IMG/VR virus record: IMGVR_UViG_3300021505_000001
Location: 1-64,000 of that record
Origin: a virus
Direction: 5' to 3' (one strand)
DNA: 64,000 nt
The notes beneath the pieces are model-generated. The model was not told the DNA's origin, did no database searches, and saw only the letters and a program-made list of their open reading frames with translations. How positions within the stretch are numbered: the first letter of the stretch is position 1; each line of letters begins with the position of its first letter. This document shows, piece after piece, positions 2,425 to 62,914 of the stretch. The position numbers and the translations under genes were made by a program.

Positions 2425-2671
2425 CATTCACCTCCGAAAACTTTCTAAGATTTTCATGACTAAACGTTTTTAACCATTCTTCCTTACGTTTCCATACACC
2501 AAATTTATTCCTTTCAATCTTCTGAAAAATCAATACACCATTGAAAGCATCCTCTACTGACCACTCCTCTGGATAAGCAGTTGTTCATATATAACCTAAG
2601 TGATCAATCATAATATCGGACGGACGGGTGATTCTATCAAAGAAACGAAAGATAAACTTGGGAATAAACAT
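2417..2671 (-). pseudogene. Small gene interrupted by an in-frame TGA
   Basis: Reading leftward from the ATG at 2671 gives 28 residues (MFIPKFIFRFFDR...), then a TGA at 2585-2587, then 55 further sense codons in the same frame (TTAYPEEWSVEDAFNG...) ending with TGA at 2417. The start is well supported: GGAG and a TAATG overlap with the end of the clamp-loader gene. The 3' end overlaps the start of the UvsY-like gene, as in a normal operon. So the whole 84-codon frame behaves like one gene with a single internal stop. It may be a recent nonsense mutation, a sequencing error, or programmed read-through. TGA is an ordinary stop elsewhere in the window. The function of the product is not recognised. 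Confidence 0.6.
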
Positions 2672-4560
2672 TATTCATCTCCTAAAACAGTAAGTAAATA
2701 ACAATCCTTTATAAGACCCGGTTTACCTACATATACATAAGAATTTTGCAACTGTTCAATAATCATTGCAGCCCTATCATTTTCTTTATTTAGCAAAACT
2801 TTACTCATATAACCTAATATAGCCCTCCGTATACCTTCAATATCCCCTTCAATTGTCTTAAGAATAGATGCTATGTTATTCCAATTTTCATGTTTCAATA
2901 ATGCTCTACACAAATCAATTACATTCGCCGTAGTCACAGAAGATGTTGTTTCAATAACCCTTATCATCATTTCAGTATCTTCCAAATCCATTACTTTATC
3001 AAGCATTACAAGTGCTTCTCTTGGACGACCTTCGGAAGATATAGTAATTTTTCGTAATACATTGACAGGTATATTTTTCCCTTCTTCCTGTAATATTTTC
3101 TTCAAGAATTTTACCATATCAGGAGTTACTAAAGGAAAAACTTGAAATAAAGCACAACGACTTTTAAGAGTACTTGCCAATTTAAAAGGTTCTGTTGTAC
3201 ATAAACAAACAATAACATGTGGTGGTGTATCTTCAAGGAATTTTAAAAGTGTTTCTTTCGCATCCTTAGTTAATTGATGTACTTCATCCAAAAGAAACAT
3301 CTTATATTTACTATTCATCGGTTGAAGGGTAGCCTTTTCAATTATTTTACGGATATCATCAATACCACGCTGTTCAGCCGCATTTGTTTCAAAAAAATCC
3401 ATTTCTGAAATATTAAAATAATTCTTTACTATACGTGCCATAGATGTCTTACCACAATTACCAGTAACAAAGATTTTATCTTTTCTTCTCAAAACTAAAT
3501 AAGAAGATGGCACTACAAAACAATACTCATAACCATCTACAGGAGTAATTTCTTTCATTACAACTTTTTTATTACTATGTATTCCAACATCAGGATTTCT
3601 TGTAGGTTGAACTATATATTCAATTCTATCTTTTCTTTTCCTTGTATAAATAGAAGCACGGGTTCCTGTAGCTGAAAATACAAATTGAACAAAATCAGCA
3701 TCAGATTTACATAACATAGTAAATCTCTTTCGATTATTATCACTATACCAATTTACCATTTCATCTTTAATTGTTTCAAGTTGTTCCATAGAACACTTAT
3801 AATAATCTGGTGTGAAACCTATTCTTTTAGGTGGGACGAAATTGAATTGAACATCTCCATTTTTTAAAGACCTCCAAAAAAATAGAATATCTGCCTTTCG
3901 TAACAAAAAATTGAGACGATTTATTTTATCTCTACTTTTTAATCTCAAATGACATTGTCCTCTACTTTCTGGAAAAGCACAATCTGTATCCATAGAAGAT
4001 AATGAATTACCCAATATTAAATTCACTGCTACTTGCACACGTAGTTGATATTCATCCAACAGCAAATTACTATCAGACTTATACAAAAATGTTGTCAAAA
4101 ATCTCCCATGGAAACCATATACAGAATTTTCATGCTGTTCTTTTATCTCAGAAAACTTTTTTACATGGAGTTTACCTTTGGGTGTTTTATACAGAACTCT
4201 ATGATCATCACTAAGACATTGGTTTACCCCATATTTTGTTTGGAATAAAGTTAGTTTATCTGATTTACGTTTTATATATTCATAGGGAGTAACAAATTCT
4301 GCTGTTCCATCTTTGTTCCACTGTAATACTTTTTCACCCTTATATTGACTAATAGGCTTCCACCCTTCGGGAGAAAGATACTCAGTATCACAATCAACAC
4401 AACCAGACTCCCCAACAAACAAAAACACTCTTGGACGTGTTTCATCTGGTTTTTCAAGAACAGACTTTAAAGAAGCTTTGGCTTCCGCATTCCCAACCAA
4501 TTCATCCAATGTAGATGGCCGATATTTAAGATGTAATGGTCCTTCTTTAACTTTAGTCAT
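2671..4560 (-). CDS. Clamp-loader ATPase (gp44/DnaX type) containing an intein
   Basis: The gene encodes 629 residues. Removal of a 315-residue intein leaves 314 residues, close to the 319 of T4 gp44. The AAA+ clamp loader opens and loads the sliding clamp. Host-protein features: YRPSTLDELVG at 13-23, Walker A GESG/CGKTS (split by the intein), the DEAD-box-like Walker B LLDEVHQL after the intein, and sensor 1 CTTEPFKL and arginine-finger SRC text that follow. The ATG at 4560 follows an AGAGGTAG motif. It belongs to the leftward recombination/replication operon, although the clamp and polymerase lie far away at 22.9-27.2 kb on the other strand. No second small clamp-loader subunit (gp62 type) is recognisable; the downstream unknown at 4578-5390 is a possible candidate only by position. 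Confidence 0.92.
   Translation of the reverse strand: MTKVKEGPLHLKYRPSTLDELVGNAEAKASLKSVLEKPDETRPRVFLFVGESGCVDCDTEYLSPEGWKPISQYKGEKVLQWNKDGTAEFVTPYEYIKRKSDKLTLFQTKYGVNQCLSDDHRVLYKTPKGKLHVKKFSEIKEQHENSVYGFHGRFLTTFLYKSDSNLLLDEYQLRVQVAVNLILGNSLSSMDTDCAFPESRGQCHLRLKSRDKINRLNFLLRKADILFFWRSLKNGDVQFNFVPPKRIGFTPDYYKCSMEQLETIKDEMVNWYSDNNRKRFTMLCKSDADFVQFVFSATGTRASIYTRKRKDRIEYIVQPTRNPDVGIHSNKKVVMKEITPVDGYEYCFVVPSSYLVLRRKDKIFVTGNCGKTSMARIVKNYFNISEMDFFETNAAEQRGIDDIRKIIEKATLQPMNSKYKMFLLDEVHQLTKDAKETLLKFLEDTPPHVIVCLCTTEPFKLASTLKSRCALFQVFPLVTPDMVKFLKKILQEEGKNIPVNVLRKITISSEGRPREALVMLDKVMDLEDTEMMIRVIETTSSVTTANVIDLCRALLKHENWNNIASILKTIEGDIEGIRRAILGYMSKVLLNKENDRAAMIIEQLQNSYVYVGKPGLIKDCYLLTVLGDE
3457..4401 (-). 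mobile_element. Intein with degenerate LAGLIDADG-type endonuclease, in the clamp-loader P-loop
   Basis: Residues 54-368 of the clamp loader are an intein. It begins with Cys54 (CVDCDTEYLSPEGWKPI, block A) and ends at Asn368 (FVTGN), followed by Cys369 of the host protein, so the splice rejoins GESG and CGKTS inside the Walker A loop. Block B (NQCLSDDHRVLYKT) includes a DDH in place of the usual TxxH. The penultimate residue is Gly instead of the usual His. The ~200-residue centre resembles a DOD homing endonuclease: LILGNSLSSMDTD at ~181-193 resembles a decayed LAGLIDADG helix, and a substrate-recognition-like segment (DADFVQFVFSATG) lies at ~287-299. Whether the endonuclease is active is doubtful. 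Confidence 0.88.
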
Positions 4561-6789: not shown

Positions 6790-6807
6790 TTCTCTCCAAA
6801 AATAAAA

Positions 6808-7097
6808 CTTAACAGAATACCTAAAAATTATTTTGTTAAGTTTTATTATTTAATTATATCAATAACTTATAAACCTTAACAGAATGAGATGTAAAAATTA
6901 ATAAAATTTATGTGGATGACTTTTCAAAAAATTAATTTGCTAAAATTTATAAACTACTAATCAGAAAAAATTAATTTGTTAAGGTATAAAAATCACTTAA
7001 TAAACCTTAACAGAATACCTAAAAATTATTTTGTTAAGTTTTATTATTTAATTATATCAATAACTTATAAACCTTAACAGAATGAGATGTAAAAATT
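6808..7097. repeat. 92-bp direct repeat (two copies) built of CTTAAC/GTTAAG motifs
   Basis: Positions 6808-6899 and 7006-7097 are identical over 92 bp. Each copy begins with an imperfect palindrome (CTTAACAGAAT ... ATTTTGTTAAG, one mismatch) and contains a third CTTAACAGAAT near its end. The 106-bp spacer holds a further AATTTGTTAAGG (near 6974-6985). The same hexamer recurs beyond the next gene at 8194-8422. The arrangement resembles iterons of a replication origin or a multi-site operator. The remaining 7098-7481 holds no gene that can be supported; one 7-bp hairpin (AGACATA/TATGTCT) lies near 7428-7447. Confidence 0.85.
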
Positions 7098-7481
7098 CAC
7101 AAATAAAATAGACTGCTATTATTTGGAAAGAGAACTATAAAATTTTTAGTATGAAAAACAAAATGGAATAATAAAGAAAGGAAAAAATAGATTTATTTTT
7201 GAAAAAAACAAGGAACAACATATAGGAAGGTATTTTTATACAGAAATGCAGGAAATTTTCACTCTATAATAACCAAATATAACTTAAAAAGAGCAAAAAA
7301 CTCCTGTAAAGAGCATTCTACAAGTGGGACATTTTATCATAGGAACAAATTTAGAGTGCAACTATCCTAAAAATTACAACACAGGAACAAAGAATTCCAT
7401 AAATTTAGGAAATATAACCCAACAGACATAAAATTGTATGTCTTTGAATATTTCATTCGCTGTATTTAGAGATTTTTAGGT

Positions 7482-8081
7482 TTATGCTAAAGATGGAATT
7501 TGATAATTACTGATAAATTCCCTGATTCTATCACGCATATTAGTTTTCCATGGAGCCCCTTCATGAACAAAGGAAAGAACCAGTTTAATCAACCACAAAA
7601 TACGACTATAAATCCATCTATTCTTAATTAATTTAGCACTTTGCCTATCACCAGAAAACTTATCATCTATTAATTTTCTAATATATTTTGGATCGATATT
7701 ATCCCGTCTCCATAAGTCTTTCCAAGCAGTATGGCTTATCTTCAAAAATCTTGAAACCACAAATTTAACTCTTTTCTTAAAAGCTACAGTATCAAACAGT
7801 TTATTATTCCAAAAACAAGTTGTTGATTTTGATAGCTTCTCTGATCTCTTATTATAAGCAGCATCTATTCTATCATATAACTCATTAGTCTTTTTCTTAA
7901 TATATCTGTTGATTTGCTTTATTTTCATGCCTTTCGGGGGCATAACAAACTTGATTATACGCATATCAATATCCTGTACAACTGTTTTATTCTTTCGAGA
8001 ATAAAGAACTGCAGCTCTGGATACTCCAAAAATTTCTGAAACAATAACAAGTGGTGTTTCTGATAATTTCTTAAAAGCCAT
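7482..8081 (-). CDS. Small basic protein with N-terminal HTH-like segment
   Basis: A 199-residue basic protein, not assigned to a family. Residues ~10-30 (VSEIFGVSRAAVLYSRKN) read like a helix-turn-helix of the kind that binds DNA sites; the rest is Lys/Arg rich and helical, with several Trp residues. It is alone on the reverse strand in a gene-poor stretch, flanked on both sides by CTTAAC repeats (6808-7097 and 8194-8422). That setting suits an origin-binding initiator or an autoregulator acting on those repeats; this is inference. The ATG at 8081 has GGGAGG upstream. Confidence 0.7.
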   Translation of the reverse strand: MAFKKLSETPLVIVSEIFGVSRAAVLYSRKNKTVVQDIDMRIIKFVMPPKGMKIKQINRYIKKKTNELYDRIDAAYNKRSEKLSKSTTCFWNNKLFDTVAFKKRVKFVVSRFLKISHTAWKDLWRRDNIDPKYIRKLIDDKFSGDRQSAKLIKNRWIYSRILWLIKLVLSFVHEGAPWKTNMRDRIREFISNYQIPSLA

Positions 8082-8193
8082 TTTAAATTACCTCCCTTAG
8101 TAAAAATTTAATTTTGTGTATCAAGTTTACAATTTTTAAATGCACATGTCAACAAATTTTTATAAAAAATCGTTTAAATAATGTTTTATAGAC

Positions 8194-8422
8194 CTTAACT
8201 TAATAGCAAAAATTGAGGAGTGATACTTAACAAAAATTAATAGGTATCAAAAAAGGTAATGATATTAAACATTTACAAAAATTAGGTAAGACTTAACAAA
8301 AATGAAACTTTAAAAAAATTGCCTTCTCGAAAACCTTGACCCACAAGCATCTCAAAAGGCAATTTTTACTAGTTTACAGCTATAATACTGGAAGAGCATA
8401 GTTAAGGCGTTATAACCTTAAC
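8194..8422. repeat. Second cluster of CTTAAC repeats, upstream of the HTH-like gene
   Basis: CTTAAC occurs at 8194, 8226, 8292 and 8417 and its complement at 8401; two of these are followed by AAAAAT, matching the CTTAACARAAT sites at 6808-7097. Positions 8401-8422 form an inverted pair (GTTAAGG ... CCTTAAC). The cluster lies just upstream of the start of the gene at 7482-8081, so it could be its operator or part of an origin. Confidence 0.65.
8314..8367. other. Long perfect stem-loop
   Basis: A 12-bp perfect inverted repeat, AAAAATTGCCTT (8314-8325) and AAGGCAATTTTT (8356-8367), encloses a 30-base loop. With A and T tracts at either end it could act as a bidirectional terminator. No gene is visible in it. 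Confidence 0.6.
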
Positions 8423-8480
8423 CTTGTGGTTTCTAAAGAGGGGAACATTACAAAAAAATTGAAAAAAACGAAAAGAGAAG

Positions 8481-8514
8481 AAAACCACTCCTGGGCAAAG
8501 AGTAGGGTTTTTTT
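8481..8514 (+). terminator. Terminator-like hairpin with U tract
   Basis: AAAACCACTC and GAGTAGGGTTTT can pair around a CTGGGCAAA loop, followed by TTTTTTT on the plus strand. On the minus strand it is followed by GTTTTCTTCTCTTTT. It may therefore stop either a small rightward transcript from the repeat region or the leftward structured RNA candidate beyond it. Confidence 0.5.
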
Positions 8515-8639
8515 ATCAATTTTTTTCTTTTTTGCAATTTTTTTATTAATTTTCTGAATATGTAATAAAAAGATTAATATTTACTACTTTTGTAGAAAAT
8601 TAATAATTTTTTGTAATATTCTTCTCTTCATAGCGATTA

Positions 8640-9857
8640 AGCTTATTTTGTAATTATGAATTTATAAAATCCCTTTGTCTCCCATTTTCTGGAAGCAAAG
8701 GAATTTTATTATTCATAATTTTATCATTGAGCGAAACAGCAGTATCTATTCTGAGAAGATATACATGCTCTTTTCTATATATTTTCTCAAAATTTACTAC
8801 TTTTTAACGTTTACTAACGACTTCCTGTATGATGATATTTAGTCCTGTGCGATTTTTTACGGCTCGCCACACCGTAACCTCCGCTTGCCTGGGTTTATGT
8901 AAAATTTAGTATGTGTTTCTTACCTATGCCGGTTACACTAACAGTGACCCCCTGCGCATAATAAATTTGAAAGTATCAAGTAAATCCATTTATATATTTA
9001 ATACAAATGGTGTTTAGACGACCTTATAAATTGTTAGGTGTCCGGGATTTAAAATCCACAACCATAACAAAATATAAGATTGCCGTTGGCCCAACTGACA
9101 CCAACTGCGGCGATTTTAGCTAAACAAAATGTCTAGCAGGACAACGCCGGTAAGAAAACCCTGTCTGATACTTTTAGCTCAAACTCATTATACTATTCCT
9201 TTCTCAGGCGGGATATAATAGTGTAGGGTGTATTTCTCACCGCAAGAACACTACATCCTAATTTTTACCCCATTTAAGCGGAATAATACACTGTGCTGGT
9301 GTGCTGTGCAATCTACCATTCTGCTCCTTTTCAGAACAGAAACACAATGTATTACCTGAACCTCCTATATAATAGGGTGGCTTGTTAAGGGAGTACCTGC
9401 CTACAGATGATTTATTCCTGTTATACATTCTTACGATTGAGCTAAACTGCATACTCAAATTAACAAACCAGCGGTTTTACCCATTATATAGTGGGTTACA
9501 AGGTTATTTACTGACGTTAATCAGTTGCCGGTATTGCCGTATCCTGTATAACTGGGTGTTTAAAAAACACACAAAGAGAGCGGTATTTTCATCATCTTTC
9601 GACTGATACCCCTACAGGGGTTATTCTGCATACCTTGGCAGAGGGTCGCCTTAATCCCCTACCACCATACAGGCAAATCCTATAATAGGATTACATTCTT
9701 TTAGTTATTATGGAGTATCCTGTCCTCTCATAACAGTATGATAAACCACAATAACAGGATTAAAGAATGTTGAAAAAACCTTTAGCTGTGCGCTAGAAAC
9801 GGCTGTTCCACACAAGCTATGATTTTTTGGTAGCCCTTTTATAGGCTTCCGTATAAT
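8640..9857 (-). ncRNA. Candidate giant structured non-coding RNA (~1.2 kb)
   Basis: This tract has no supportable gene, is richer in G+C than its surroundings and is packed with inverted repeats. Clear stems include 8652-8720 (three stacked arms of 10, 7 and 6 bp), the TTACGG/CCGTAA hairpin near 8858, CCATTT/AAATGG near 8987, an extended pairing around GATTGCCG/CGGCGATT near 9081, TTCTG/CAGAA near 9317, AACCCA/TGGGTT near 9475, ACCCC/GGGGT near 9608, AATCCTA/TAGGATT near 9685, and a nested pair ACATTCTTT/AAAGAATGT enclosing ATCCTGT/ACAGGAT at ~9699-9771. The leftward strand is favoured because a TTGACA/TAAAAC promoter sits at 9858-9886 and several loops become purine rich (one GAAA tetraloop). 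Size and phage setting recall GOLLD/ROOL-class RNAs, but no class was matched. Confidence 0.5.
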
Positions 9858-9886
9858 GTTTTACTATAAGAAAAAATTCTTGTCAA
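9858..9886 (-). promoter_or_regulatory. Leftward sigma70-type promoter for the structured RNA
   Basis: On the reverse strand, TTGACA (9886-9881) and TAAAAC (9863-9858) are separated by exactly 17 bases. The predicted start near 9851 is just before the first hairpin (GGAAGCC/GGCTACC) of the structured tract. The -10 matches the consensus at four of six positions. Confidence 0.45.
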
Positions 9887-9909
9887 CAAAAAAAATTTAT
9901 TTTTTTCTC

Positions 9910-9938
9910 TTGACAAACTGATATTAAATGTTTATTTT
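9910..9938 (+). promoter_or_regulatory. Early promoter P1 upstream of the GGCT-like gene
   Basis: TTGACA at 9910-9915, a 17-base spacer and TATTTT at 9933-9938. The same promoter with nearly identical spacer occurs at 31637-31665, upstream of another early gene, so it belongs to a duplicated promoter module. Confidence 0.7.
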
Positions 9939-10001
9939 AATATAAAAGCTAAGTGAGATATACTTTCCAAAAAATTTTTTAGTTTTTATTAAAGTTTTTT
10001 C

Positions 10002-10030
10002 TTGACATACCGATATATATAATATACATT
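10002..10030 (+). promoter_or_regulatory. Early promoter P2 upstream of the GGCT-like gene
   Basis: TTGACA at 10002-10007 and TACATT at 10025-10030, 17 bases apart. The stretch from TTATTAAAG through CTTAGACA is repeated almost exactly at 31697-31757, where it again forms the proximal one of two tandem promoters. Confidence 0.65.
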
Positions 10031-10075
10031 AAGAGAAAACTTAGACAACAACTCAATTTTAAGGAGGTATAATAA

Positions 10076-10432
10076 ATGGAATATTTAGTATTTGTATATG
10101 GCTCATTGAAAAGAGGGTATTGGAATTATGAAACATTTCTTAAGGGAAGATCAAAATTTGTTTGTGATGCCGAAACCTGTTATAAAATGTATATGACAGA
10201 TATTGGGTATCCTCTTGTTACTAAGACAATTCCAAAAACTACAATTAAAGGTGAATTATTTATAATTGATGAGATAGTTTTGAAGGATTTGGATACTCTT
10301 GAAGGACATCCTGTTTATTATCATAGGGAAATTACTGAAGTAATTGCCAATGATGGAAAAGTATTAAAAGCCTGGATGTATTTCAATGATAGAGTAGAAG
10401 GAAAATGTATTTCAAATGGAATTTGGTCTTGA
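10076..10432 (+). CDS. Gamma-glutamylcyclotransferase-like (AIG2/GGCT fold) protein
   Basis: A 118-residue protein of the GGCT/AIG2-like fold. The N-terminal signature VYGSLKRG (residues 7-14) is the glycine-rich substrate loop; the acidic residue in DTLEGHP (~80-86) matches the catalytic Glu region, and YYHRE follows. Known members act on gamma-glutamyl amines or peptides to release 5-oxoproline; the substrate here is unknown. The ATG at 10076 follows AAGGAGG. Its TGA stop is embedded in the first of four TTGACA promoters that drive the neighbouring glutamine amidotransferase. The two glutamine/glutamyl enzymes side by side suggest a shared pathway. Confidence 0.85.
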   Translation: MEYLVFVYGSLKRGYWNYETFLKGRSKFVCDAETCYKMYMTDIGYPLVTKTIPKTTIKGELFIIDEIVLKDLDTLEGHPVYYHREITEVIANDGKVLKAWMYFNDRVEGKCISNGIWS

Positions 10433-10687
10433 CAAATAAATACTTATTTGTTTATATTATCTTAAAATTTGGTCTTGACAAATAAATACTTATTTGTTTA
10501 TATTATCCTGAAATTTATAATTTATGATTAATAAGGAGAGTTTATAAATGAAATGGAATTTGGTCTTGACAAATAAATACTTATTTGTTTATATTATCCT
10601 GTAATTTGGTCTTGACAAATAAATACTTATTTGTTTATATTATCCTGAAATTTATAATTTATGATTAATAAGGAGAGTTTATAAATG
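10414..10687 (+). repeat. 137-bp tandem duplication carrying four identical promoters
   Basis: Positions 10414-10550 and 10551-10687 are near-identical copies of 137 bp. Each contains two promoters plus a leader with GGAGAG and an ATG. The last codons of the upstream gene (AAATGGAATTTGGTC) are copied too, so they now follow the first leader's ATG at 10548. The second leader's ATG at 10685 starts the glutamine amidotransferase gene. Confidence 0.9.
10429..10640 (+). promoter_or_regulatory. Four promoters with a palindromic operator between -35 and -10
   Basis: TTGACA occurs at 10429, 10475, 10566 and 10612, each followed after 18 bases by TATATT. In every copy the spacer holds CAAATAA-ATAC-TTATTTG, 7-bp inverted arms. 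A dimeric repressor bound there would cover both promoter elements, so the array is probably repressible. The regulator is not identified in the window. Confidence 0.8.
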
Positions 10688-23892: not shown

Positions 23893-26800
23893 ATGGAAGG
23901 TTTCTTTTTTGATGATTCTGTACCTGTAAATAAAAATTTACAGTTGTCAAATAAAAGAAGAGAAAGAGCTTTAATGTTTCCTGAGTTGTTGTGTGAGGAA
24001 TGTTCTCTTTATAAAAGATGTAATTCCCCCAAAATGGAATATACAGGGGAAGGTAGATTAAAATGTTTAATAATTGCTGAGGCTCCAGGTGAAAAAGAAG
24101 ATGCTTTAGGAAAACAACTAGTTGGAAAAGCAGGAAATTTACTACGTCTCCGTTTAAAAATACTTGGTTTAGATTTAGACAAGGATTTTTGGAAGATTAA
24201 TGCTGTAAATTGTCATATTCCATTTAATCGAAAGCCAAAAGATAAAGAAATTAACTGCTGTTGGAATTATCTTGTTGAAAAAACAATTAAAAAGTTAAAA
24301 CCAAAGGTAATTTGGCTTTTTGGAGAAGTTGCAGCTAATTCTTATTTTAAGAATAGATTTGGTCTTGAAAAAAGATCAATTTCAAAATGGAGGCGTTGGT
24401 GTATACCTGACTATGAGTTGGGTTGCTGGGTTATTCCTTTATTTCATCCCTCTTATATCCTTAGAAATCAACACGATGTTCTTCTTAGTAAAATTTTTGA
24501 TAGAGATTTGGTATTTGCTAAATCTTGTTTTTCTAAAGAAGCTCCTGTAAAGCTTGGTATAGATTTTATAGATTCTAAGATAAAAAAGGTAGTTTCATTT
24601 CGGGAGGTTGTTTCTCTTTTAAGAGAGACAATGAAAAAAGATATAATAGCTTTTGACTATGAAACTTCAGGACTAAAACCTTACCATCCAGAACACCGTA
24701 TATGGTCTATATCTGTAGCTTGGGATAATGATTTTGCTTTTGCTATACCCTATCAATATACTGGTCATTTTGGGGAAAAAGAACAGTTAAAAATAAAAAG
24801 TTTATGGAGTAGAATTTTAGAAAATCCAAACATAAAAAAGATAGCTCATAATTTGAAATATGAAGATCATTGGTCATCTGTTTTCTTTACTGATGTAAAG
24901 GGATGGTATTGGGATACAATGGTTAATTCTCATATCCTTGATAATAGAGGAGGTATATCCAGTCTTAAATTTCAAACATTTATTCGGTATGGAATTGTTG
25001 GATATGAAACAGAAGTAAAAAAATATATGACTCCATTGAAAGGAAGTGTTCGGAATAGACTTGATGAATTTCCACTTAGAAGCTTACTTAAATATAATGC
25101 TCAAGATTCTTTGTTTACGATGTGGATTTATAATGATCAGGCTAAAATTTTGAACAGAGATAAAGACAGTCGTAAAAAAGCTCGATTATTTTTTCATAAA
25201 GGAATATTAGCATTATCTCAAGCTGAGAAGCAAGGGTGGTGTGTTGATGTAGATTATTATAATAAGAAAAACAAAGAGCTTGAAGATAGGTTAGTAACAC
25301 TTGAAAGTGAACTATTAAACCATAAAGCCTCAAAAGAATTTAAAAAAAGATTTAGAAGGGAACCGAAAATACGTTCAACAAGAGACCTGCCAACTATATT
25401 ATATGATATATTGAATCTTACAACAAATAAATTAACAGCTACAGGTGCTAAGTCTGTAGATAAGACGGTAATTCAAGAGTTTGCTAATCAAGGAAATTCT
25501 TTTTGTGAAAAATTGCTTGAATACCGTATGATTGATAAAGCTAAGAATACTTATCTTCATCAGTTTAAAATAGAGGTTTCCTTTGATAATAAAATTCATC
25601 CTGTATATAATTTACATATTCCAAAGACATATCGTTCCTCTTGTTCTAATCCAAACGCTCAAAATCTTCCAATCAGAATAGATTTAGTTAAAAAGATAGT
25701 CAGAGGTGGCATTATTCCAAGTCCAGGGCATAAAATTCTTGAAGGGGATTTTGGGTCTTTGGAAGTACGTATTGGGGCATGTATTCATAAAGACCCTAAT
25801 ATGATTAGATATATTCTTGAATCTGGTACAGATATGCATCGTGATACAGCTTGTGATATATGGATGCTAAAACCAGAGAATGTATCTAAAAAAATACGTT
25901 TCTTTGCTAAAAACTGTTGGGTATTCCCACAGTTTTATGGGGATTGGTATAAATCTTGTGCTTATAATTTATGGGAAAATTGTCTTGACCTTAAGACAGA
26001 AGATGGTGTTCCATTAAAAGAACATTTAAAAACATGTAAAGTTAGTGTAAGAGACCCAGTAACAGGAGTTGTTATTGAAAGACCAATGACAACTTATGAT
26101 GTTTTTGAGGAACACTGTCATCATGTTGAAAATATTTTTTGGAAAGAAAGATTTAAAATTTATGATAAATGGAAAACAGAAATCACTGAATTCTACCGAG
26201 ATCATGGATATATAGAGACACCTTTCGGATTTAGGTTAACAAGTCCTATGTCCAAAAAAGAATGTAGTAATTATCCGGTGCAGGGATGTTTGCAAGGACA
26301 TTGTAAAGTTTTAACAAGTAAAGGGGAGTATCGTATTGATTCACTTGTTAATAAAGTTGTTAAGGTATGGACAGGTTTTGAGTGGAAACCGGCAATAGGT
26401 GTTAATAGAGGTAAATGCCGTTTAGCAACTGTTACATTAGAATCAGGATTGAAATTAGATTGTGATATTAGACACGAGTTTAAAGATGTTCATTTGGAAT
26501 GGGTAAAATTTGAAGATTTAAAAGTAGGGGATTATATAGCACTTCCTAATTTTAAGTTTCATAATCCCTTTCCATATAAAAAAACACCTTATAAGTTTGG
26601 AATTAATGATCAAATATTACCTACAGACTTATATTTAAATAAACAGAATCTTTTACATAAGATTTATAATTGTTGCAAATTTCCCGTTGAAATTGTAAAA
26701 TATGGAATAAAGAATATTTTTAATTCTTTGTTAAGAAATAGTATATCTCATACGTTATTTGATAAGAGTGAGGCTGAATATATTTGTACACGATTTTATT

Positions 26801-27186
26801 GTTTTGATAAGGTTAAAGATATACAGATTCATAAAGAAAAGGATTATACTTATACAATGTCAGTTAATGATAATTTGCATCAATTTGTTGCAGATGGTAT
26901 AATTTGTAAAAATACAGCTTTTCATTGTCTTTTGTGGAGTTTTATAGAATTAATAAATATTCAAAGGGAAAGAAAGTGGAAATCTAAACTTATCGGACAG
27001 ATACATGATAGTATAATTGTGGATTTGTGTCCAGATGAACAGGATGAAGTTATTGAAACGATGGAATATATTATGACAAAAAAACTTGTTGAGGAAAATC
27101 CTTGGATTATTGTTCCATTGGAAGTTGATTTTGAAATAACAGGTATTAATGAGCCATGGTCCGAAAAAACTGATTTGGTAAATTAA
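23893..27186 (+). CDS. UDG-PolA fusion DNA polymerase with an intein
   Basis: A 1097-residue polypeptide; 888 residues remain after intein removal. Residues ~30-210 form a family 4-type uracil-DNA glycosylase domain: CEEC (34-37), AEAPGEKEDALGKQLVGKAG (62-81) and HPSYILRN (185-192). Residues ~235-420 form a DnaQ-like 3'-5' exonuclease: DYETSG (255-260) and YNAQDS (401-406). The family A polymerase follows: motif A EGDFGSLEVR (617-626), motif B from RFFAKNCWVF to FYGD, and motif C QIHDS (1036-1040). A UDG-like domain fused to PolA is known from SPO1-type phages. The last intein-free motif is reached only after splicing. Confidence 0.93.
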   Translation: MEGFFFDDSVPVNKNLQLSNKRRERALMFPELLCEECSLYKRCNSPKMEYTGEGRLKCLIIAEAPGEKEDALGKQLVGKAGNLLRLRLKILGLDLDKDFWKINAVNCHIPFNRKPKDKEINCCWNYLVEKTIKKLKPKVIWLFGEVAANSYFKNRFGLEKRSISKWRRWCIPDYELGCWVIPLFHPSYILRNQHDVLLSKIFDRDLVFAKSCFSKEAPVKLGIDFIDSKIKKVVSFREVVSLLRETMKKDIIAFDYETSGLKPYHPEHRIWSISVAWDNDFAFAIPYQYTGHFGEKEQLKIKSLWSRILENPNIKKIAHNLKYEDHWSSVFFTDVKGWYWDTMVNSHILDNRGGISSLKFQTFIRYGIVGYETEVKKYMTPLKGSVRNRLDEFPLRSLLKYNAQDSLFTMWIYNDQAKILNRDKDSRKKARLFFHKGILALSQAEKQGWCVDVDYYNKKNKELEDRLVTLESELLNHKASKEFKKRFRREPKIRSTRDLPTILYDILNLTTNKLTATGAKSVDKTVIQEFANQGNSFCEKLLEYRMIDKAKNTYLHQFKIEVSFDNKIHPVYNLHIPKTYRSSCSNPNAQNLPIRIDLVKKIVRGGIIPSPGHKILEGDFGSLEVRIGACIHKDPNMIRYILESGTDMHRDTACDIWMLKPENVSKKIRFFAKNCWVFPQFYGDWYKSCAYNLWENCLDLKTEDGVPLKEHLKTCKVSVRDPVTGVVIERPMTTYDVFEEHCHHVENIFWKERFKIYDKWKTEITEFYRDHGYIETPFGFRLTSPMSKKECSNYPVQGCLQGHCKVLTSKGEYRIDSLVNKVVKVWTGFEWKPAIGVNRGKCRLATVTLESGLKLDCDIRHEFKDVHLEWVKFEDLKVGDYIALPNFKFHNPFPYKKTPYKFGINDQILPTDLYLNKQNLLHKIYNCCKFPVEIVKYGIKNIFNSLLRNSISHTLFDKSEAEYICTRFYCFDKVKDIQIHKEKDYTYTMSVNDNLHQFVADGIICKNTAFHCLLWSFIELINIQRERKWKSKLIGQIHDSIIVDLCPDEQDEVIETMEYIMTKKLVEENPWIIVPLEVDFEITGINEPWSEKTDLVN
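26287..26913 (+). mobile_element. Mini-intein in the DNA polymerase
   Basis: Residues 799-1007 (209 residues) form an intein. It starts with Cys799 (CLQGHCKVLTSKGEYRI, block A), carries a block B-like segment around LDCDIRHEF, and ends with FVADGIICKN (block F/G) followed by Thr1008. Splicing rejoins PVQG and TAFH, the very conserved O-helix/palm region of PolA enzymes. The penultimate residue is Lys instead of His. The central ~85 residues (NLLHKIYNCCKF ... DKSEAEYIC) look like the remnant of a homing endonuclease. Confidence 0.9.
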
Positions 27187-59776: not shown

Positions 59777-59849
59777 TGAAATATAAGTAAATATTAGGGT
59801 TATATGTAATAAATGAATTTTTAATTTTTAAAGAAAAAGGAGAAAATGT

Positions 59850-60719
59850 ATGAAGGAAAAAATGAATGTGAAAAGATTTATAGGTATCATCTTAATTTTG
59901 TTACTAATTGTCTGTACAAGTAAGTATGTTTGTGCTAGTCTTATAAAAATGTCTGATTGGGGGTTTGATCCTACTGGTACAGGTACAAATATAGTAACTC
60001 CTGTTGATGAAATTACATTACTTTCATTGACGTTGAACAATAGTTCGCCAACCTATTTTGGACATGGTACATTTAAAACGTTAAGTGCCATGCAGGCAGA
60101 ACATTTTCAAAACAATAACATAGCCATTACACCTACAAGCTTAGGTGTAATGTATGAGATAACAGGTGTTATGATTACGGAAGGATATTATAACCGTAAC
60201 TCAACTACAGGTTTAAATGATTTAACATTTACAAATGGAAGTTTGAATTTGTATATTGATAACACTTTAAATTATGGAACCGATAATGGTTTCTTTGGGG
60301 CTGATAATGGCAATCTGATTGCTTCTTTTGCATTGGATAGTGGGTCAGGAACTATGAATTATAATATACCATATCCTGATGGACGTACTGATCTGATTTG
60401 GAGGTCAACATATCTTGCCCCAGGTTATTGGTATGGTCCTAATCAGGTAGATATGTCAGGTGTAATGGAATTGGCAATTACCGATTCCAACAATACCATT
60501 ATTAGAAACCCTTCGATTATAGCTCAAAATGAGTTTACAGATAATACAGGCATGATATACACACAAGCTGGTGATGTAGCAGATATACAGAACTTTATTA
60601 GTTCTAATGGATCGCTGGCTCCAGCGGCTCCTGTTCCTGAACCTTGTACTTTATTATTGTTTGGTTCGGGTTTATGTTTTATAGGATTTGTAAGTAAGTC
60701 AAAAAGGATATTTGGATAA
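59850..60719 (+). CDS. Secreted protein with PEP-CTERM sorting signal
   Basis: A 289-residue protein. Residues ~8-30 (KRFIGIILILLLIVCTS ... VCAS) form a Sec signal peptide. The body is Asn/Thr/Gly rich and beta-like, as in secreted surface proteins. The C terminus has the full PEP-CTERM layout: the PVPEP motif (261-265; PEP at 263-265), a hydrophobic stretch (TLLLFGSGLCFIGFV, 267-281) and a basic end (SKSKR). In bacteria such tails are cut by exosortase, often with exopolysaccharide production. The ATG at 59850 follows AAAGGAG; a hairpin terminator follows the stop. Such a protein is not a normal phage structural gene and may be a host-derived cargo gene. Confidence 0.85.
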   Translation: MKEKMNVKRFIGIILILLLIVCTSKYVCASLIKMSDWGFDPTGTGTNIVTPVDEITLLSLTLNNSSPTYFGHGTFKTLSAMQAEHFQNNNIAITPTSLGVMYEITGVMITEGYYNRNSTTGLNDLTFTNGSLNLYIDNTLNYGTDNGFFGADNGNLIASFALDSGSGTMNYNIPYPDGRTDLIWRSTYLAPGYWYGPNQVDMSGVMELAITDSNNTIIRNPSIIAQNEFTDNTGMIYTQAGDVADIQNFISSNGSLAPAAPVPEPCTLLLFGSGLCFIGFVSKSKRIFG

Positions 60720-60730
60720 CATAATTGTTG

Positions 60731-60757
60731 CCCTTGATAGATTAATTCTATCAAGGG
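60731..60757 (+). terminator. Hairpin terminator after the PEP-CTERM gene
   Basis: CCCTTGATAGA and TCTATCAAGGG form a perfect 11-bp stem with a TTAAT loop; the following U run is weak (CTTACTTTAAATATTTC). Confidence 0.7.
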
Positions 60758-60814
60758 CTTACTTTAAATATTTCTTTTTGAATAGATAAAGTTTTTTGAA
60801 AGGAGTAATATTTG

Positions 60815-60898
60815 ATGAAAACTTTCTTTTTTGAAATATTTGGATTTCTTTACAAAAAACTTTGGGTTGAAGCTATAGTTATTACGAACTCTTGTTGA
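60815..60898 (+). CDS. Possible 27-residue peptide
   Basis: ATG at 60815 follows AAAGGAG at a good distance. The peptide is strongly aromatic (MKTFFFEIFGFLYKKLW ...). It is the only frame behind a clear ribosome binding site between the PEP-CTERM gene and the zinc-ribbon gene. Existence is uncertain. Confidence 0.35.
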   Translation: MKTFFFEIFGFLYKKLWVEAIVITNSC

Positions 60899-60991
60899 AT
60901 TTGAATAAATACTTTTATAGTATCTTCCTTTTTTGATTATAAGAGAGAAGATGCTGTTTATATTGTATCTGAAGATAGGTTGATTTGCATT

Positions 60992-61546
60992 ATGAATACT
61001 GAAGAATGGCTTAAACAAAATACCTTTAGGTGTCCTATAGGACGTGTGTCCTTAAAACAGTGTGAATCATTAAGGAAACGACCTGTCTTTGGTGAAAAAA
61101 TATCATTGAGCACACCAAATGATTATAATTTATACATGCCAAGGGTGTGTGAGAAGTGTACTGAATGGAAAAAATTTGCTGACTCTTATAGGAATGAGTC
61201 TATAAAAAAGAAAGAAAATCGTAAGGAGAAGAATCAAATGAAGGAAACAGTTATTTGTAAAGAATGTGGAGGAAAGTTTGAACCTTATAAGAATGGGAAA
61301 AATATAATAACAAGTTATTGTCCTGAATGTTTAAGAATTAAAAAACAAAAAGGAATTTTGAAACGTAAGGTGGAAAAGAATGCTGAAAAACTGCTTTTTT
61401 GTATTCGTTTAACAGGATTTCCTAACTTATATGATCAACTTATAAAATCAGCAAACAAAAACATAAGGACTCCTGAACACCAGGCAATAGCTTATCTTGT
61501 TGAGAGTTTAGAAGCTGATGGTTTTAAAATTGAGAGGGAATACTAA
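60992..61546 (+). CDS. Zinc-ribbon hypothetical protein
   Basis: A 184-residue basic protein with several Cys pairs: CPIG ... QCE, CEKC (~54-57), CKEC (~90-93) and YCPEC (~111-114), giving two likely zinc ribbons separated by a Lys-rich linker. The last ~60 residues are helical (FPNLYDQLIKSANKNIR). Start at 60992 is chosen over an upstream TTG at 60980; no clear ribosome binding site is present for either. It may be a small transcription regulator. Confidence 0.65.
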   Translation: MNTEEWLKQNTFRCPIGRVSLKQCESLRKRPVFGEKISLSTPNDYNLYMPRVCEKCTEWKKFADSYRNESIKKKENRKEKNQMKETVICKECGGKFEPYKNGKNIITSYCPECLRIKKQKGILKRKVEKNAEKLLFCIRLTGFPNLYDQLIKSANKNIRTPEHQAIAYLVESLEADGFKIEREY

Positions 61547-62275: not shown

Positions 62276-62914
62276 ATGAAAGTTTCCATTTGTAAATGTA
62301 TATATTGTAAGTTTTTGGAGAGTATCAATAAAAAAGAGAATACTCTATCTTGTATACTTGAAAATGGTGAAACTTTATCTTTACCTATTTTAATAGATGC
62401 TGCTACTATTCAAAAGGTTGTGGATTGCCCAAGGGAAGATAATACTGTAAAGATTAAAGTAGTTAAAGATAATGATGGAATTGAAATGCCTTTTTATGCT
62501 ACTCCAAGTTCATCAGGGTTTGATTTAATTGCATCTGAAATGGTACTATTGAAACCAGATGAAAGAAAGTTAATACCTACAGGATTAAGATTTGAAATTC
62601 CTGATGGTTACGAACTTCAAATAAGACCACGTTCAGGAATATCTTTGAAAACTTCTATAATAATGCCTGATTCTCCTGGTACAATAGATGCTGATTATAG
62701 AGGTGAAATTCAAATAATACTTTGGAATACAAGTAATAAGGAGAGTTATACTGTTAATAAGGGAGATAGGATAGCTCAGGGTGTTTTGATTAAAATTGAA
62801 AGAGCTGAGTTTGTTGTGGTTGATGAACTTACAAAAACTATTAGACAAGAAGGTGGTTTTGGTCATACAGGATACTGTGTAAAAGAAGCAAATTTTTGTC
62901 AGAAAAGGGATTAA
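62276..62914 (+). CDS. dUTPase with N-terminal extension
   Basis: A 212-residue trimeric-type dUTP pyrophosphatase that converts dUTP to dUMP and keeps uracil out of DNA. All five motifs are present: SSSGFDL (motif 1, ~81-87), RPRSGIS (motif 2), GTIDADYRGEI (motif 3), KGDRIAQ (motif 4) and GGFGHTG (motif 5, ~197). A ~55-residue N-terminal extension with CKCIYC is not usual for the family. AGAGG precedes the ATG at 62276. It complements the UDG domain of the phage polymerase. Confidence 0.92.
   Translation: MKVSICKCIYCKFLESINKKENTLSCILENGETLSLPILIDAATIQKVVDCPREDNTVKIKVVKDNDGIEMPFYATPSSSGFDLIASEMVLLKPDERKLIPTGLRFEIPDGYELQIRPRSGISLKTSIIMPDSPGTIDADYRGEIQIILWNTSNKESYTVNKGDRIAQGVLIKIERAEFVVVDELTKTIRQEGGFGHTGYCVKEANFCQKRD

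What the first reader, a model, noticed from the sequence alone, without database searches (positions are those of the whole stretch)
8640..9857. Candidate giant structured RNA in a 1.2-kb gene-free tract
The tract has no supportable gene, is richer in G+C than its neighbours, and is full of inverted repeats: a three-arm stem at 8652-8720, and a nested pair near 9699-9771 in which a 9-bp stem encloses a 7-bp stem. A reverse-strand TTGACA-17-TAAAAC promoter lies exactly at its right edge and a terminator-like hairpin at 8481-8514 on its left. Phages are known carriers of very large RNAs (GOLLD, ROOL). No match could be tested here, so it could be a known class or a new one.
Basis: partly seen in the sequence, partly recalled or inferred. 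Interest (0 to 1): 0.88.

Follow-up and report, generated by a model that had tools for sequence, protein, structure and literature searches.

The report
Giant structured RNA gene of phage
A 155-kb virus of microbes carries a 1.2-kb stretch that encodes no protein but would fold, when copied into RNA, into an exceptionally elaborate structure unlike any RNA family on file; it probably makes a giant working RNA, but no relatives were found, no expression was seen, and its job is unknown.

Summary
The tract is real. Positions 8082-10075 are the largest gene-free gap in this 155.7-kb phage (1994 bp; the next is 774). G+C inside it rises to about 0.39-0.42 against 0.30 for the genome, and no frame has coding potential. 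Read on the minus strand (about 9852 to 8640), it folds at -400.8 kcal/mol against a shuffle mean of -291.3 (sd 9.7, z = -11.2); the plus strand reaches z = -6.8. No control window from the same phage comes near. High-confidence G-U pairs are 23 on the minus strand and 6 on the plus, pointing to a leftward RNA rather than a DNA palindrome.

No Rfam 15 family matches, even at E <= 10; the ROOL model recognises a known ROOL but not this tract. I found no homologue in GenBank phages, plasmids, 55 related virus records (one 273.6 kb, capsid protein 62% identical) or about 1190 sampled prokaryotic genomes. Covariation could therefore not be tested, and neither was transcription.

Verdict: most likely a new giant non-coding RNA of the GOLLD/ROOL kind (phage-borne, huge, ornate) but a member of neither family, with no tRNAs nearby. 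Its function as a structural or scaffold RNA is inference only.

The parts
8640..9852 (-). body of the proposed giant structured RNA (about 1.2 kb; 5' end near 9852, transcript possibly running on to about 8480)
   Evidence: MFE z -11.2; non-coding; 309 of 337 confident pairs unchanged when the 3' end is extended to 8480
9858..9886 (-). candidate sigma-70-like promoter TTGACA-17-TAAAAC
   Evidence: direct reading; -10 box only 4/6, not listed by the scanner
8485..8505 (-). candidate terminator hairpin (8 bp) followed by a U-rich tail; probably bidirectional
   Evidence: sequence
9676..9770 (-). 5' domain: nested stem 9770-9762:9701-9693 enclosing 9755-9746:9713-9704 and two inner helices, then hairpin 9692-9686:9682-9676
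   Evidence: pair probabilities 0.91-1.00
9660..9673 (-). 5' half of a 14-bp long-range helix (partner 8824-8837, 849 nt away) that closes the central domain
   Evidence: probability 0.97; contains two G-U pairs
8824..8837 (-). 3' half of the 14-bp long-range helix
8880..9282 (-). central arm: about ten stacked helices (9282-9165 with 8979-8880) ending in a multibranch of hairpins (9148-8986)
   Evidence: helix probabilities mostly 0.75-1.00; this 403-nt piece alone z -7.5
9283..9355 (-). branched hairpin domain 9355-9342:9296-9283 with two inner hairpins
   Evidence: probability 0.93
8723..8821 (-). long 3' hairpin I
   Evidence: probabilities 0.83-0.98
8652..8720 (-). long 3' hairpin II (10+14+6 bp)
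   Evidence: probabilities 0.95-0.99; 200-nt window z about -9

Best explanation
The tract is a gene for a giant structured non-coding RNA of about 1.2-1.37 kb, transcribed leftward from a sigma-70-like promoter (-35 at 9886) and ending at or before the hairpin at 8505-8485. The RNA folds into a 5' hairpin domain, a large central domain closed by an 849-nt-span helix and carrying a long arm with a multibranch tip, and two long 3' hairpins. It most likely acts as the folded RNA itself, as a stable, abundant infection-stage RNA that scaffolds or encloses something (itself as an oligomer, as shown for GOLLD and ROOL, or a host machine), not as a message or a short antisense regulator. Shown: no coding signal, extreme and strand-biased folding potential, no match to a known family. 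Inferred: transcription, boundaries, exact fold. Guess by analogy (about 0.35): scaffold or cage function. The confidence below is for a functional giant leftward RNA, not for the cage or scaffold role.
For: Largest gene-free gap in the genome; no coding signal. Minus strand -400.8 vs shuffles -291.3 +/- 9.7, none of 100 below -314.8; plus strand weaker. Genome controls far weaker. Signal spread over the length: six of the seven non-overlapping 200-nt minus-strand windows from 8601 to 10000 have z of -3.1 or lower; RNA 100-1048, without the 3' hairpins, still has z -10.6. G-U pairs above P 0.9: 23 minus, 6 plus; long-range pairs above P 0.9: 64 vs 43. Precedents: a roughly 1-kb ORF-less tract gives the most abundant transcript of phage ICP1, and phage K makes abundant long non-coding RNAs (PMC7567579; PMC9241854).
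Against: One sequence only: no homologue, so no covariation. No RNA-seq. Weak -10 box. The plus strand is also significant (z -6.8), so part of the signal is plain inverted repeats. The closest near-complete relative, G016, shows no comparable tract. Two published phage giant RNAs and a ROOL fold far less extremely by the same measure (z -3.2, -4.9 and no marked excess), so this one is not typical of that kind.
Confidence: 0.72

Rival explanations
1. The repeats act as DNA: a replication origin, packaging site or recombination element built of many inverted repeats, with no functional RNA.
For: Both strands fold significantly; the tract lies near a repeat-bearing intergenic zone (105-nt repeat at 6801-7103).
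Against: Strong strand asymmetry and G-U excess on the minus strand (23 vs 6 high-confidence), helices spanning 200-850 nt that a duplex could not extrude easily, and no iteron family inside the tract.
Confidence: 0.1
2. It is a long leader or antisense transcript: a 5' UTR of the leftward gene 8081-7482 or a regulator of the divergent operon at 10076 onward.
For: Same strand as ORF 7482-8081; divergent promoter-like sites lie at 9910 and 10002.
Against: A terminator-like hairpin and about 400 nt of A+T-rich DNA separate it from 8081; 1.2 kb of structure is far beyond usual leaders; no riboswitch or leader family matches.
Confidence: 0.1
3. Remnant of a mobile ribozyme (group I or II intron, HEARO-like) or of a decayed gene or captured foreign fragment.
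For: Large, branched, richer in G+C than its neighbours, not found in relatives.
Against: No group I, group II or HEARO match at E <= 10, no reverse transcriptase or homing nuclease recognised among the flanking ORFs, no protein-like frame; a decayed element should not keep z -11.
Confidence: 0.08

Closest known systems
GOLLD RNA
   Same: phage/prophage-encoded, giant (>800 nt), ornate (PMC12286853)
   Different: no covariance-model match even at E <= 10; no tRNAs in the record; about 1.2 kb or more
ROOL RNA
   Same: phage-encoded, large, multi-domain
   Different: ROOL model gives no match here but finds the known pMP118 ROOL at E 1e-29; the ROOL model is 574 positions long; no tRNA island here
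ICP1 gp139-gp140 RNA and phage K lnc002 (unclassified giant phage RNAs)
   Same: roughly 1-kb ORF-less tract in a phage of over 100 kb; ICP1's also lacks tRNA neighbours
   Different: no alignable sequence (best E 0.15); their folding z is -3.2 and -4.9 against -11 here
OLE and HEARO RNAs
   Same: large ornate bacterial RNAs
   Different: no match; no protein typical of either was recognised among the flanking ORFs tested

Membership tests
ROOL (RF03087) | scores above the ROOL covariance-model cut-off | tested here: not met
   positive control
ROOL (RF03087) | encoded by phage or prophage, often near a tRNA island | tested here: not met
   phage yes, but no tRNA in the window or in the rest of the record; 'often', so not an absolute criterion
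ROOL (RF03087) | assembles into an RNA-only cage | not testable with these tools
   needs cryo-EM or native gel
GOLLD | covariance-model match, with a conserved 3' region | tested here: not met
   whole-Rfam scan, no GOLLD match at E <= 10; no GOLLD positive control was run
GOLLD | phage-encoded RNA over 800 nt in a gene-free tract | tested here: met
   (structure predicted, transcription not shown)
Group I / group II intron, HEARO | catalytic core or family covariance model | tested here: not met
OLE | OLE covariance model | tested here: not met
giant structured phage RNA (loose kind) | conserved secondary structure shown by covariation | not testable with these tools
   no homologue found
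giant structured phage RNA (loose kind) | abundant transcript during infection | not testable with these tools
   no transcriptome available

The most novel reading that the evidence does not exclude
A new class of giant phage RNA, about 1.2-1.4 kb, larger and far more stably folded than the phage giant RNAs compared here, independent of tRNA islands, and so recently acquired or fast-evolving that a relative with a 62%-identical capsid protein lacks a recognisable copy.
Probability: 0.6. Interest if true: 0.72.

Novelty: new variant of a known kind. Interest (0 to 1): 0.55.

Why it matters
Only a few giant bacterial and phage RNAs are known. The ones solved recently proved to be RNA-only homo-oligomers, two of them cages, of unknown purpose (PMC12286853). 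A further, unrelated giant RNA in a phage would suggest that such RNAs have arisen repeatedly in large phages, and would give an independent case for asking what they do. Its predicted stability makes it a good candidate for in-vitro folding and cryo-EM.

Tried and rejected
Rfam at gathering threshold and at E <= 10: nothing credible (the best, tsr31 at 31.6 bits against a cut-off of 50, is a hairpin match). Distant blastn in phages and plasmids: only short A+T-rich matches. Protein-anchored searches for sister phages: the GATase, the DnaB-like helicase and the capsid protein returned none by exact peptides; terminase and DNA polymerase gave relatives at about 24-48% identity. Exact-pattern scans: 5 and 51 viral contigs matched 16-mers, none similar beyond the seed; a 20-mer in genome contigs gave 0. 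G016's gene-free tracts: the best (59843-61183) holds tRNAs and is not syntenic. Covariance models of two subdomains, each built from this single sequence: only hits in the tract itself, plus one E 0.19 match inside a G016 ORF, judged chance. An attempted test with other energy parameter sets did not take effect (identical energies) and is not used. A GAAA-receptor-like UAUGG/CCUAA pairing was seen by eye but is as well explained as an ordinary helix. A threefold ACCGGC word was counted but not pursued because many words were inspected.

Full report
What was checked. The window is the first 64 kb of a 155.7-kb virus record, G+C 0.30. Gap 8082-10075 is its longest gene-free stretch, 1994 bp, followed by gaps of 774, 571, 520 and 500 bp. 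Inside 8640-9857 no frame looks coding by codon usage, whereas the flanking genes do. The two longest ORFs (66 and 74 aa, TTG starts) match no Pfam or PHROG family. G+C rises to 0.37-0.42 over most of the tract, as is usual for structured RNA genes in A+T-rich genomes (general knowledge).

Folding. The 1231-nt minus strand 9870-8640 has a minimum free energy of -400.8 kcal/mol; 100 dinucleotide shuffles average -291.3, sd 9.7, lowest -314.8, z -11.2. The plus strand has -322.8 against -266.4, z -6.8. Twenty windows of the same length along the genome, both strands, gave gains over shuffles averaging -13 kcal/mol. The only value below -43.2 came from a window that overlaps this tract. In 200-nt windows about 7% of background values are below z -3; six of the seven minus-strand windows from 8601 to 10000 are, the exception being 8801-9000, which pairs over long range. 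Removing the 5' hairpins and the two long 3' hairpins (RNA 100-1048) leaves z -10.6.

Strand. The predicted minus-strand RNA has 45 G-U pairs in its minimum-energy fold, 23 of them with probability above 0.9; the plus strand has 28 and 6. High-confidence long-range pairs number 64 against 43. A DNA palindrome has no reason to favour wobble pairs on one strand. This is the best available argument for an RNA read leftward.

Anatomy. 5' hairpins at 9850-9773; nested stem 9770-9693; hairpin 9692-9676; a 14-bp helix 9673-9660:8837-8824 closing a central domain; within it a poorly determined stretch (about 9659-9526, probabilities 0.1-0.6), a branched hairpin 9355-9283, and a long arm 9282-9165:8979-8880 tipped by a multibranch 9148-8986; then two long 3' hairpins, 8821-8723 and 8720-8652. 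With a start near 9852 (inferred from the -10 box) and an end extended to 8480, 309 of 337 confident pairs persist. The hairpin at 8505-8485 has U-rich sequence after it.

Known families. No Rfam 15 family reaches its cut-off anywhere in the window. For 8000-10100 nothing credible appears at E <= 10; Rfam's large-RNA and intron families therefore do not match. The ROOL model was tested by itself on the whole record: nothing; the same model finds the known ROOL of plasmid pMP118 at E 1.1e-29, so the search works for ROOL. No tRNA or tmRNA was found in the record, with or without introns, unlike the frequent tRNA-island setting of GOLLD and ROOL (PMC12286853). Two published unclassified giant phage RNAs, from ICP1 and phage K (PMC7567579, PMC9241854), do not align with it. 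By the same measure they fold with z -3.2 and -4.9 on their RNA strand, and the pMP118 ROOL shows no marked excess on either strand. This tract is therefore unusual even among its kind, and a strongly negative z is not a requirement of that kind.

Relatives. Sister phages were sought with five proteins. The nearest by DNA polymerase are at about 46-51%: G017 (55 kb), G007 (67 kb) and G016 (273.6 kb). G016 is a true relative over much of the genome: capsid protein 62%, terminase 47%, one protein 78%. It has 20 tRNA genes but no tract comparable with this one. Its best gap (59843-61183, gain -72) contains tRNAs and is not syntenic; the others are weaker. Searches by DNA similarity and by covariance models of two subdomains found only the tract itself. 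One E 0.19 match lies inside a coding ORF. Near-identical records may have been withheld by the tools, so strain-level relatives cannot be excluded; an RNA diverged beyond blastn could also have been missed.

Interpretation. A stretch this long, non-coding, G+C-enriched and strand-biased in folding is best explained as a giant RNA gene (0.72). What the RNA does is not shown. By analogy with GOLLD and ROOL, which form RNA-only cages of unknown purpose (PMC12286853), a structural or scaffolding role during infection is the most likely mechanism (about 0.35 on its own), with transcription, ends and partners all still to be shown. The main weaknesses are that there is a single sequence, no covariation, no transcript, a weak promoter, and a plus strand that also folds well.

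Noticed in passing
10429-10643: Four identical copies of a promoter-like 32-mer (TTGACAAATAAATACTTATTTGTTTATATTAT), containing an operator-like inverted repeat, in a tandem-duplicated spacer before the class-II glutamine amidotransferase gene.
   Followed up: partly
6801-7103: 105-nt direct repeat (97% identical), 198 nt apart; the gap around it carries six of the seven CTTAACARAAT words of the window (0.36 expected in 64 kb) and folds with z about -8: possible origin or regulatory repeats.
   Followed up: partly
2671-4560 and 23893-27186: Intein-like insertions in the clamp-loader ATPase and in the DNA polymerase, judged by eye from the translations.
   Followed up: no
59850-60719: Protein ending in a PEP-CTERM-like sorting signal, judged by eye; unusual for a phage and may hint at the host.
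   Followed up: no
62276-62914 (and record 73929-74489): Two dUTPase-like paralogues in one phage; three further tandem paralogues at record positions 70556-73761.
   Followed up: no
L201 (G016:60001-80000) 14-889: Relative G016 has a cluster of tRNA genes in which ARAGORN reads introns (two tRNA-Asn calls), in a 1.3-kb gene-free tract with excess folding.
   Followed up: partly
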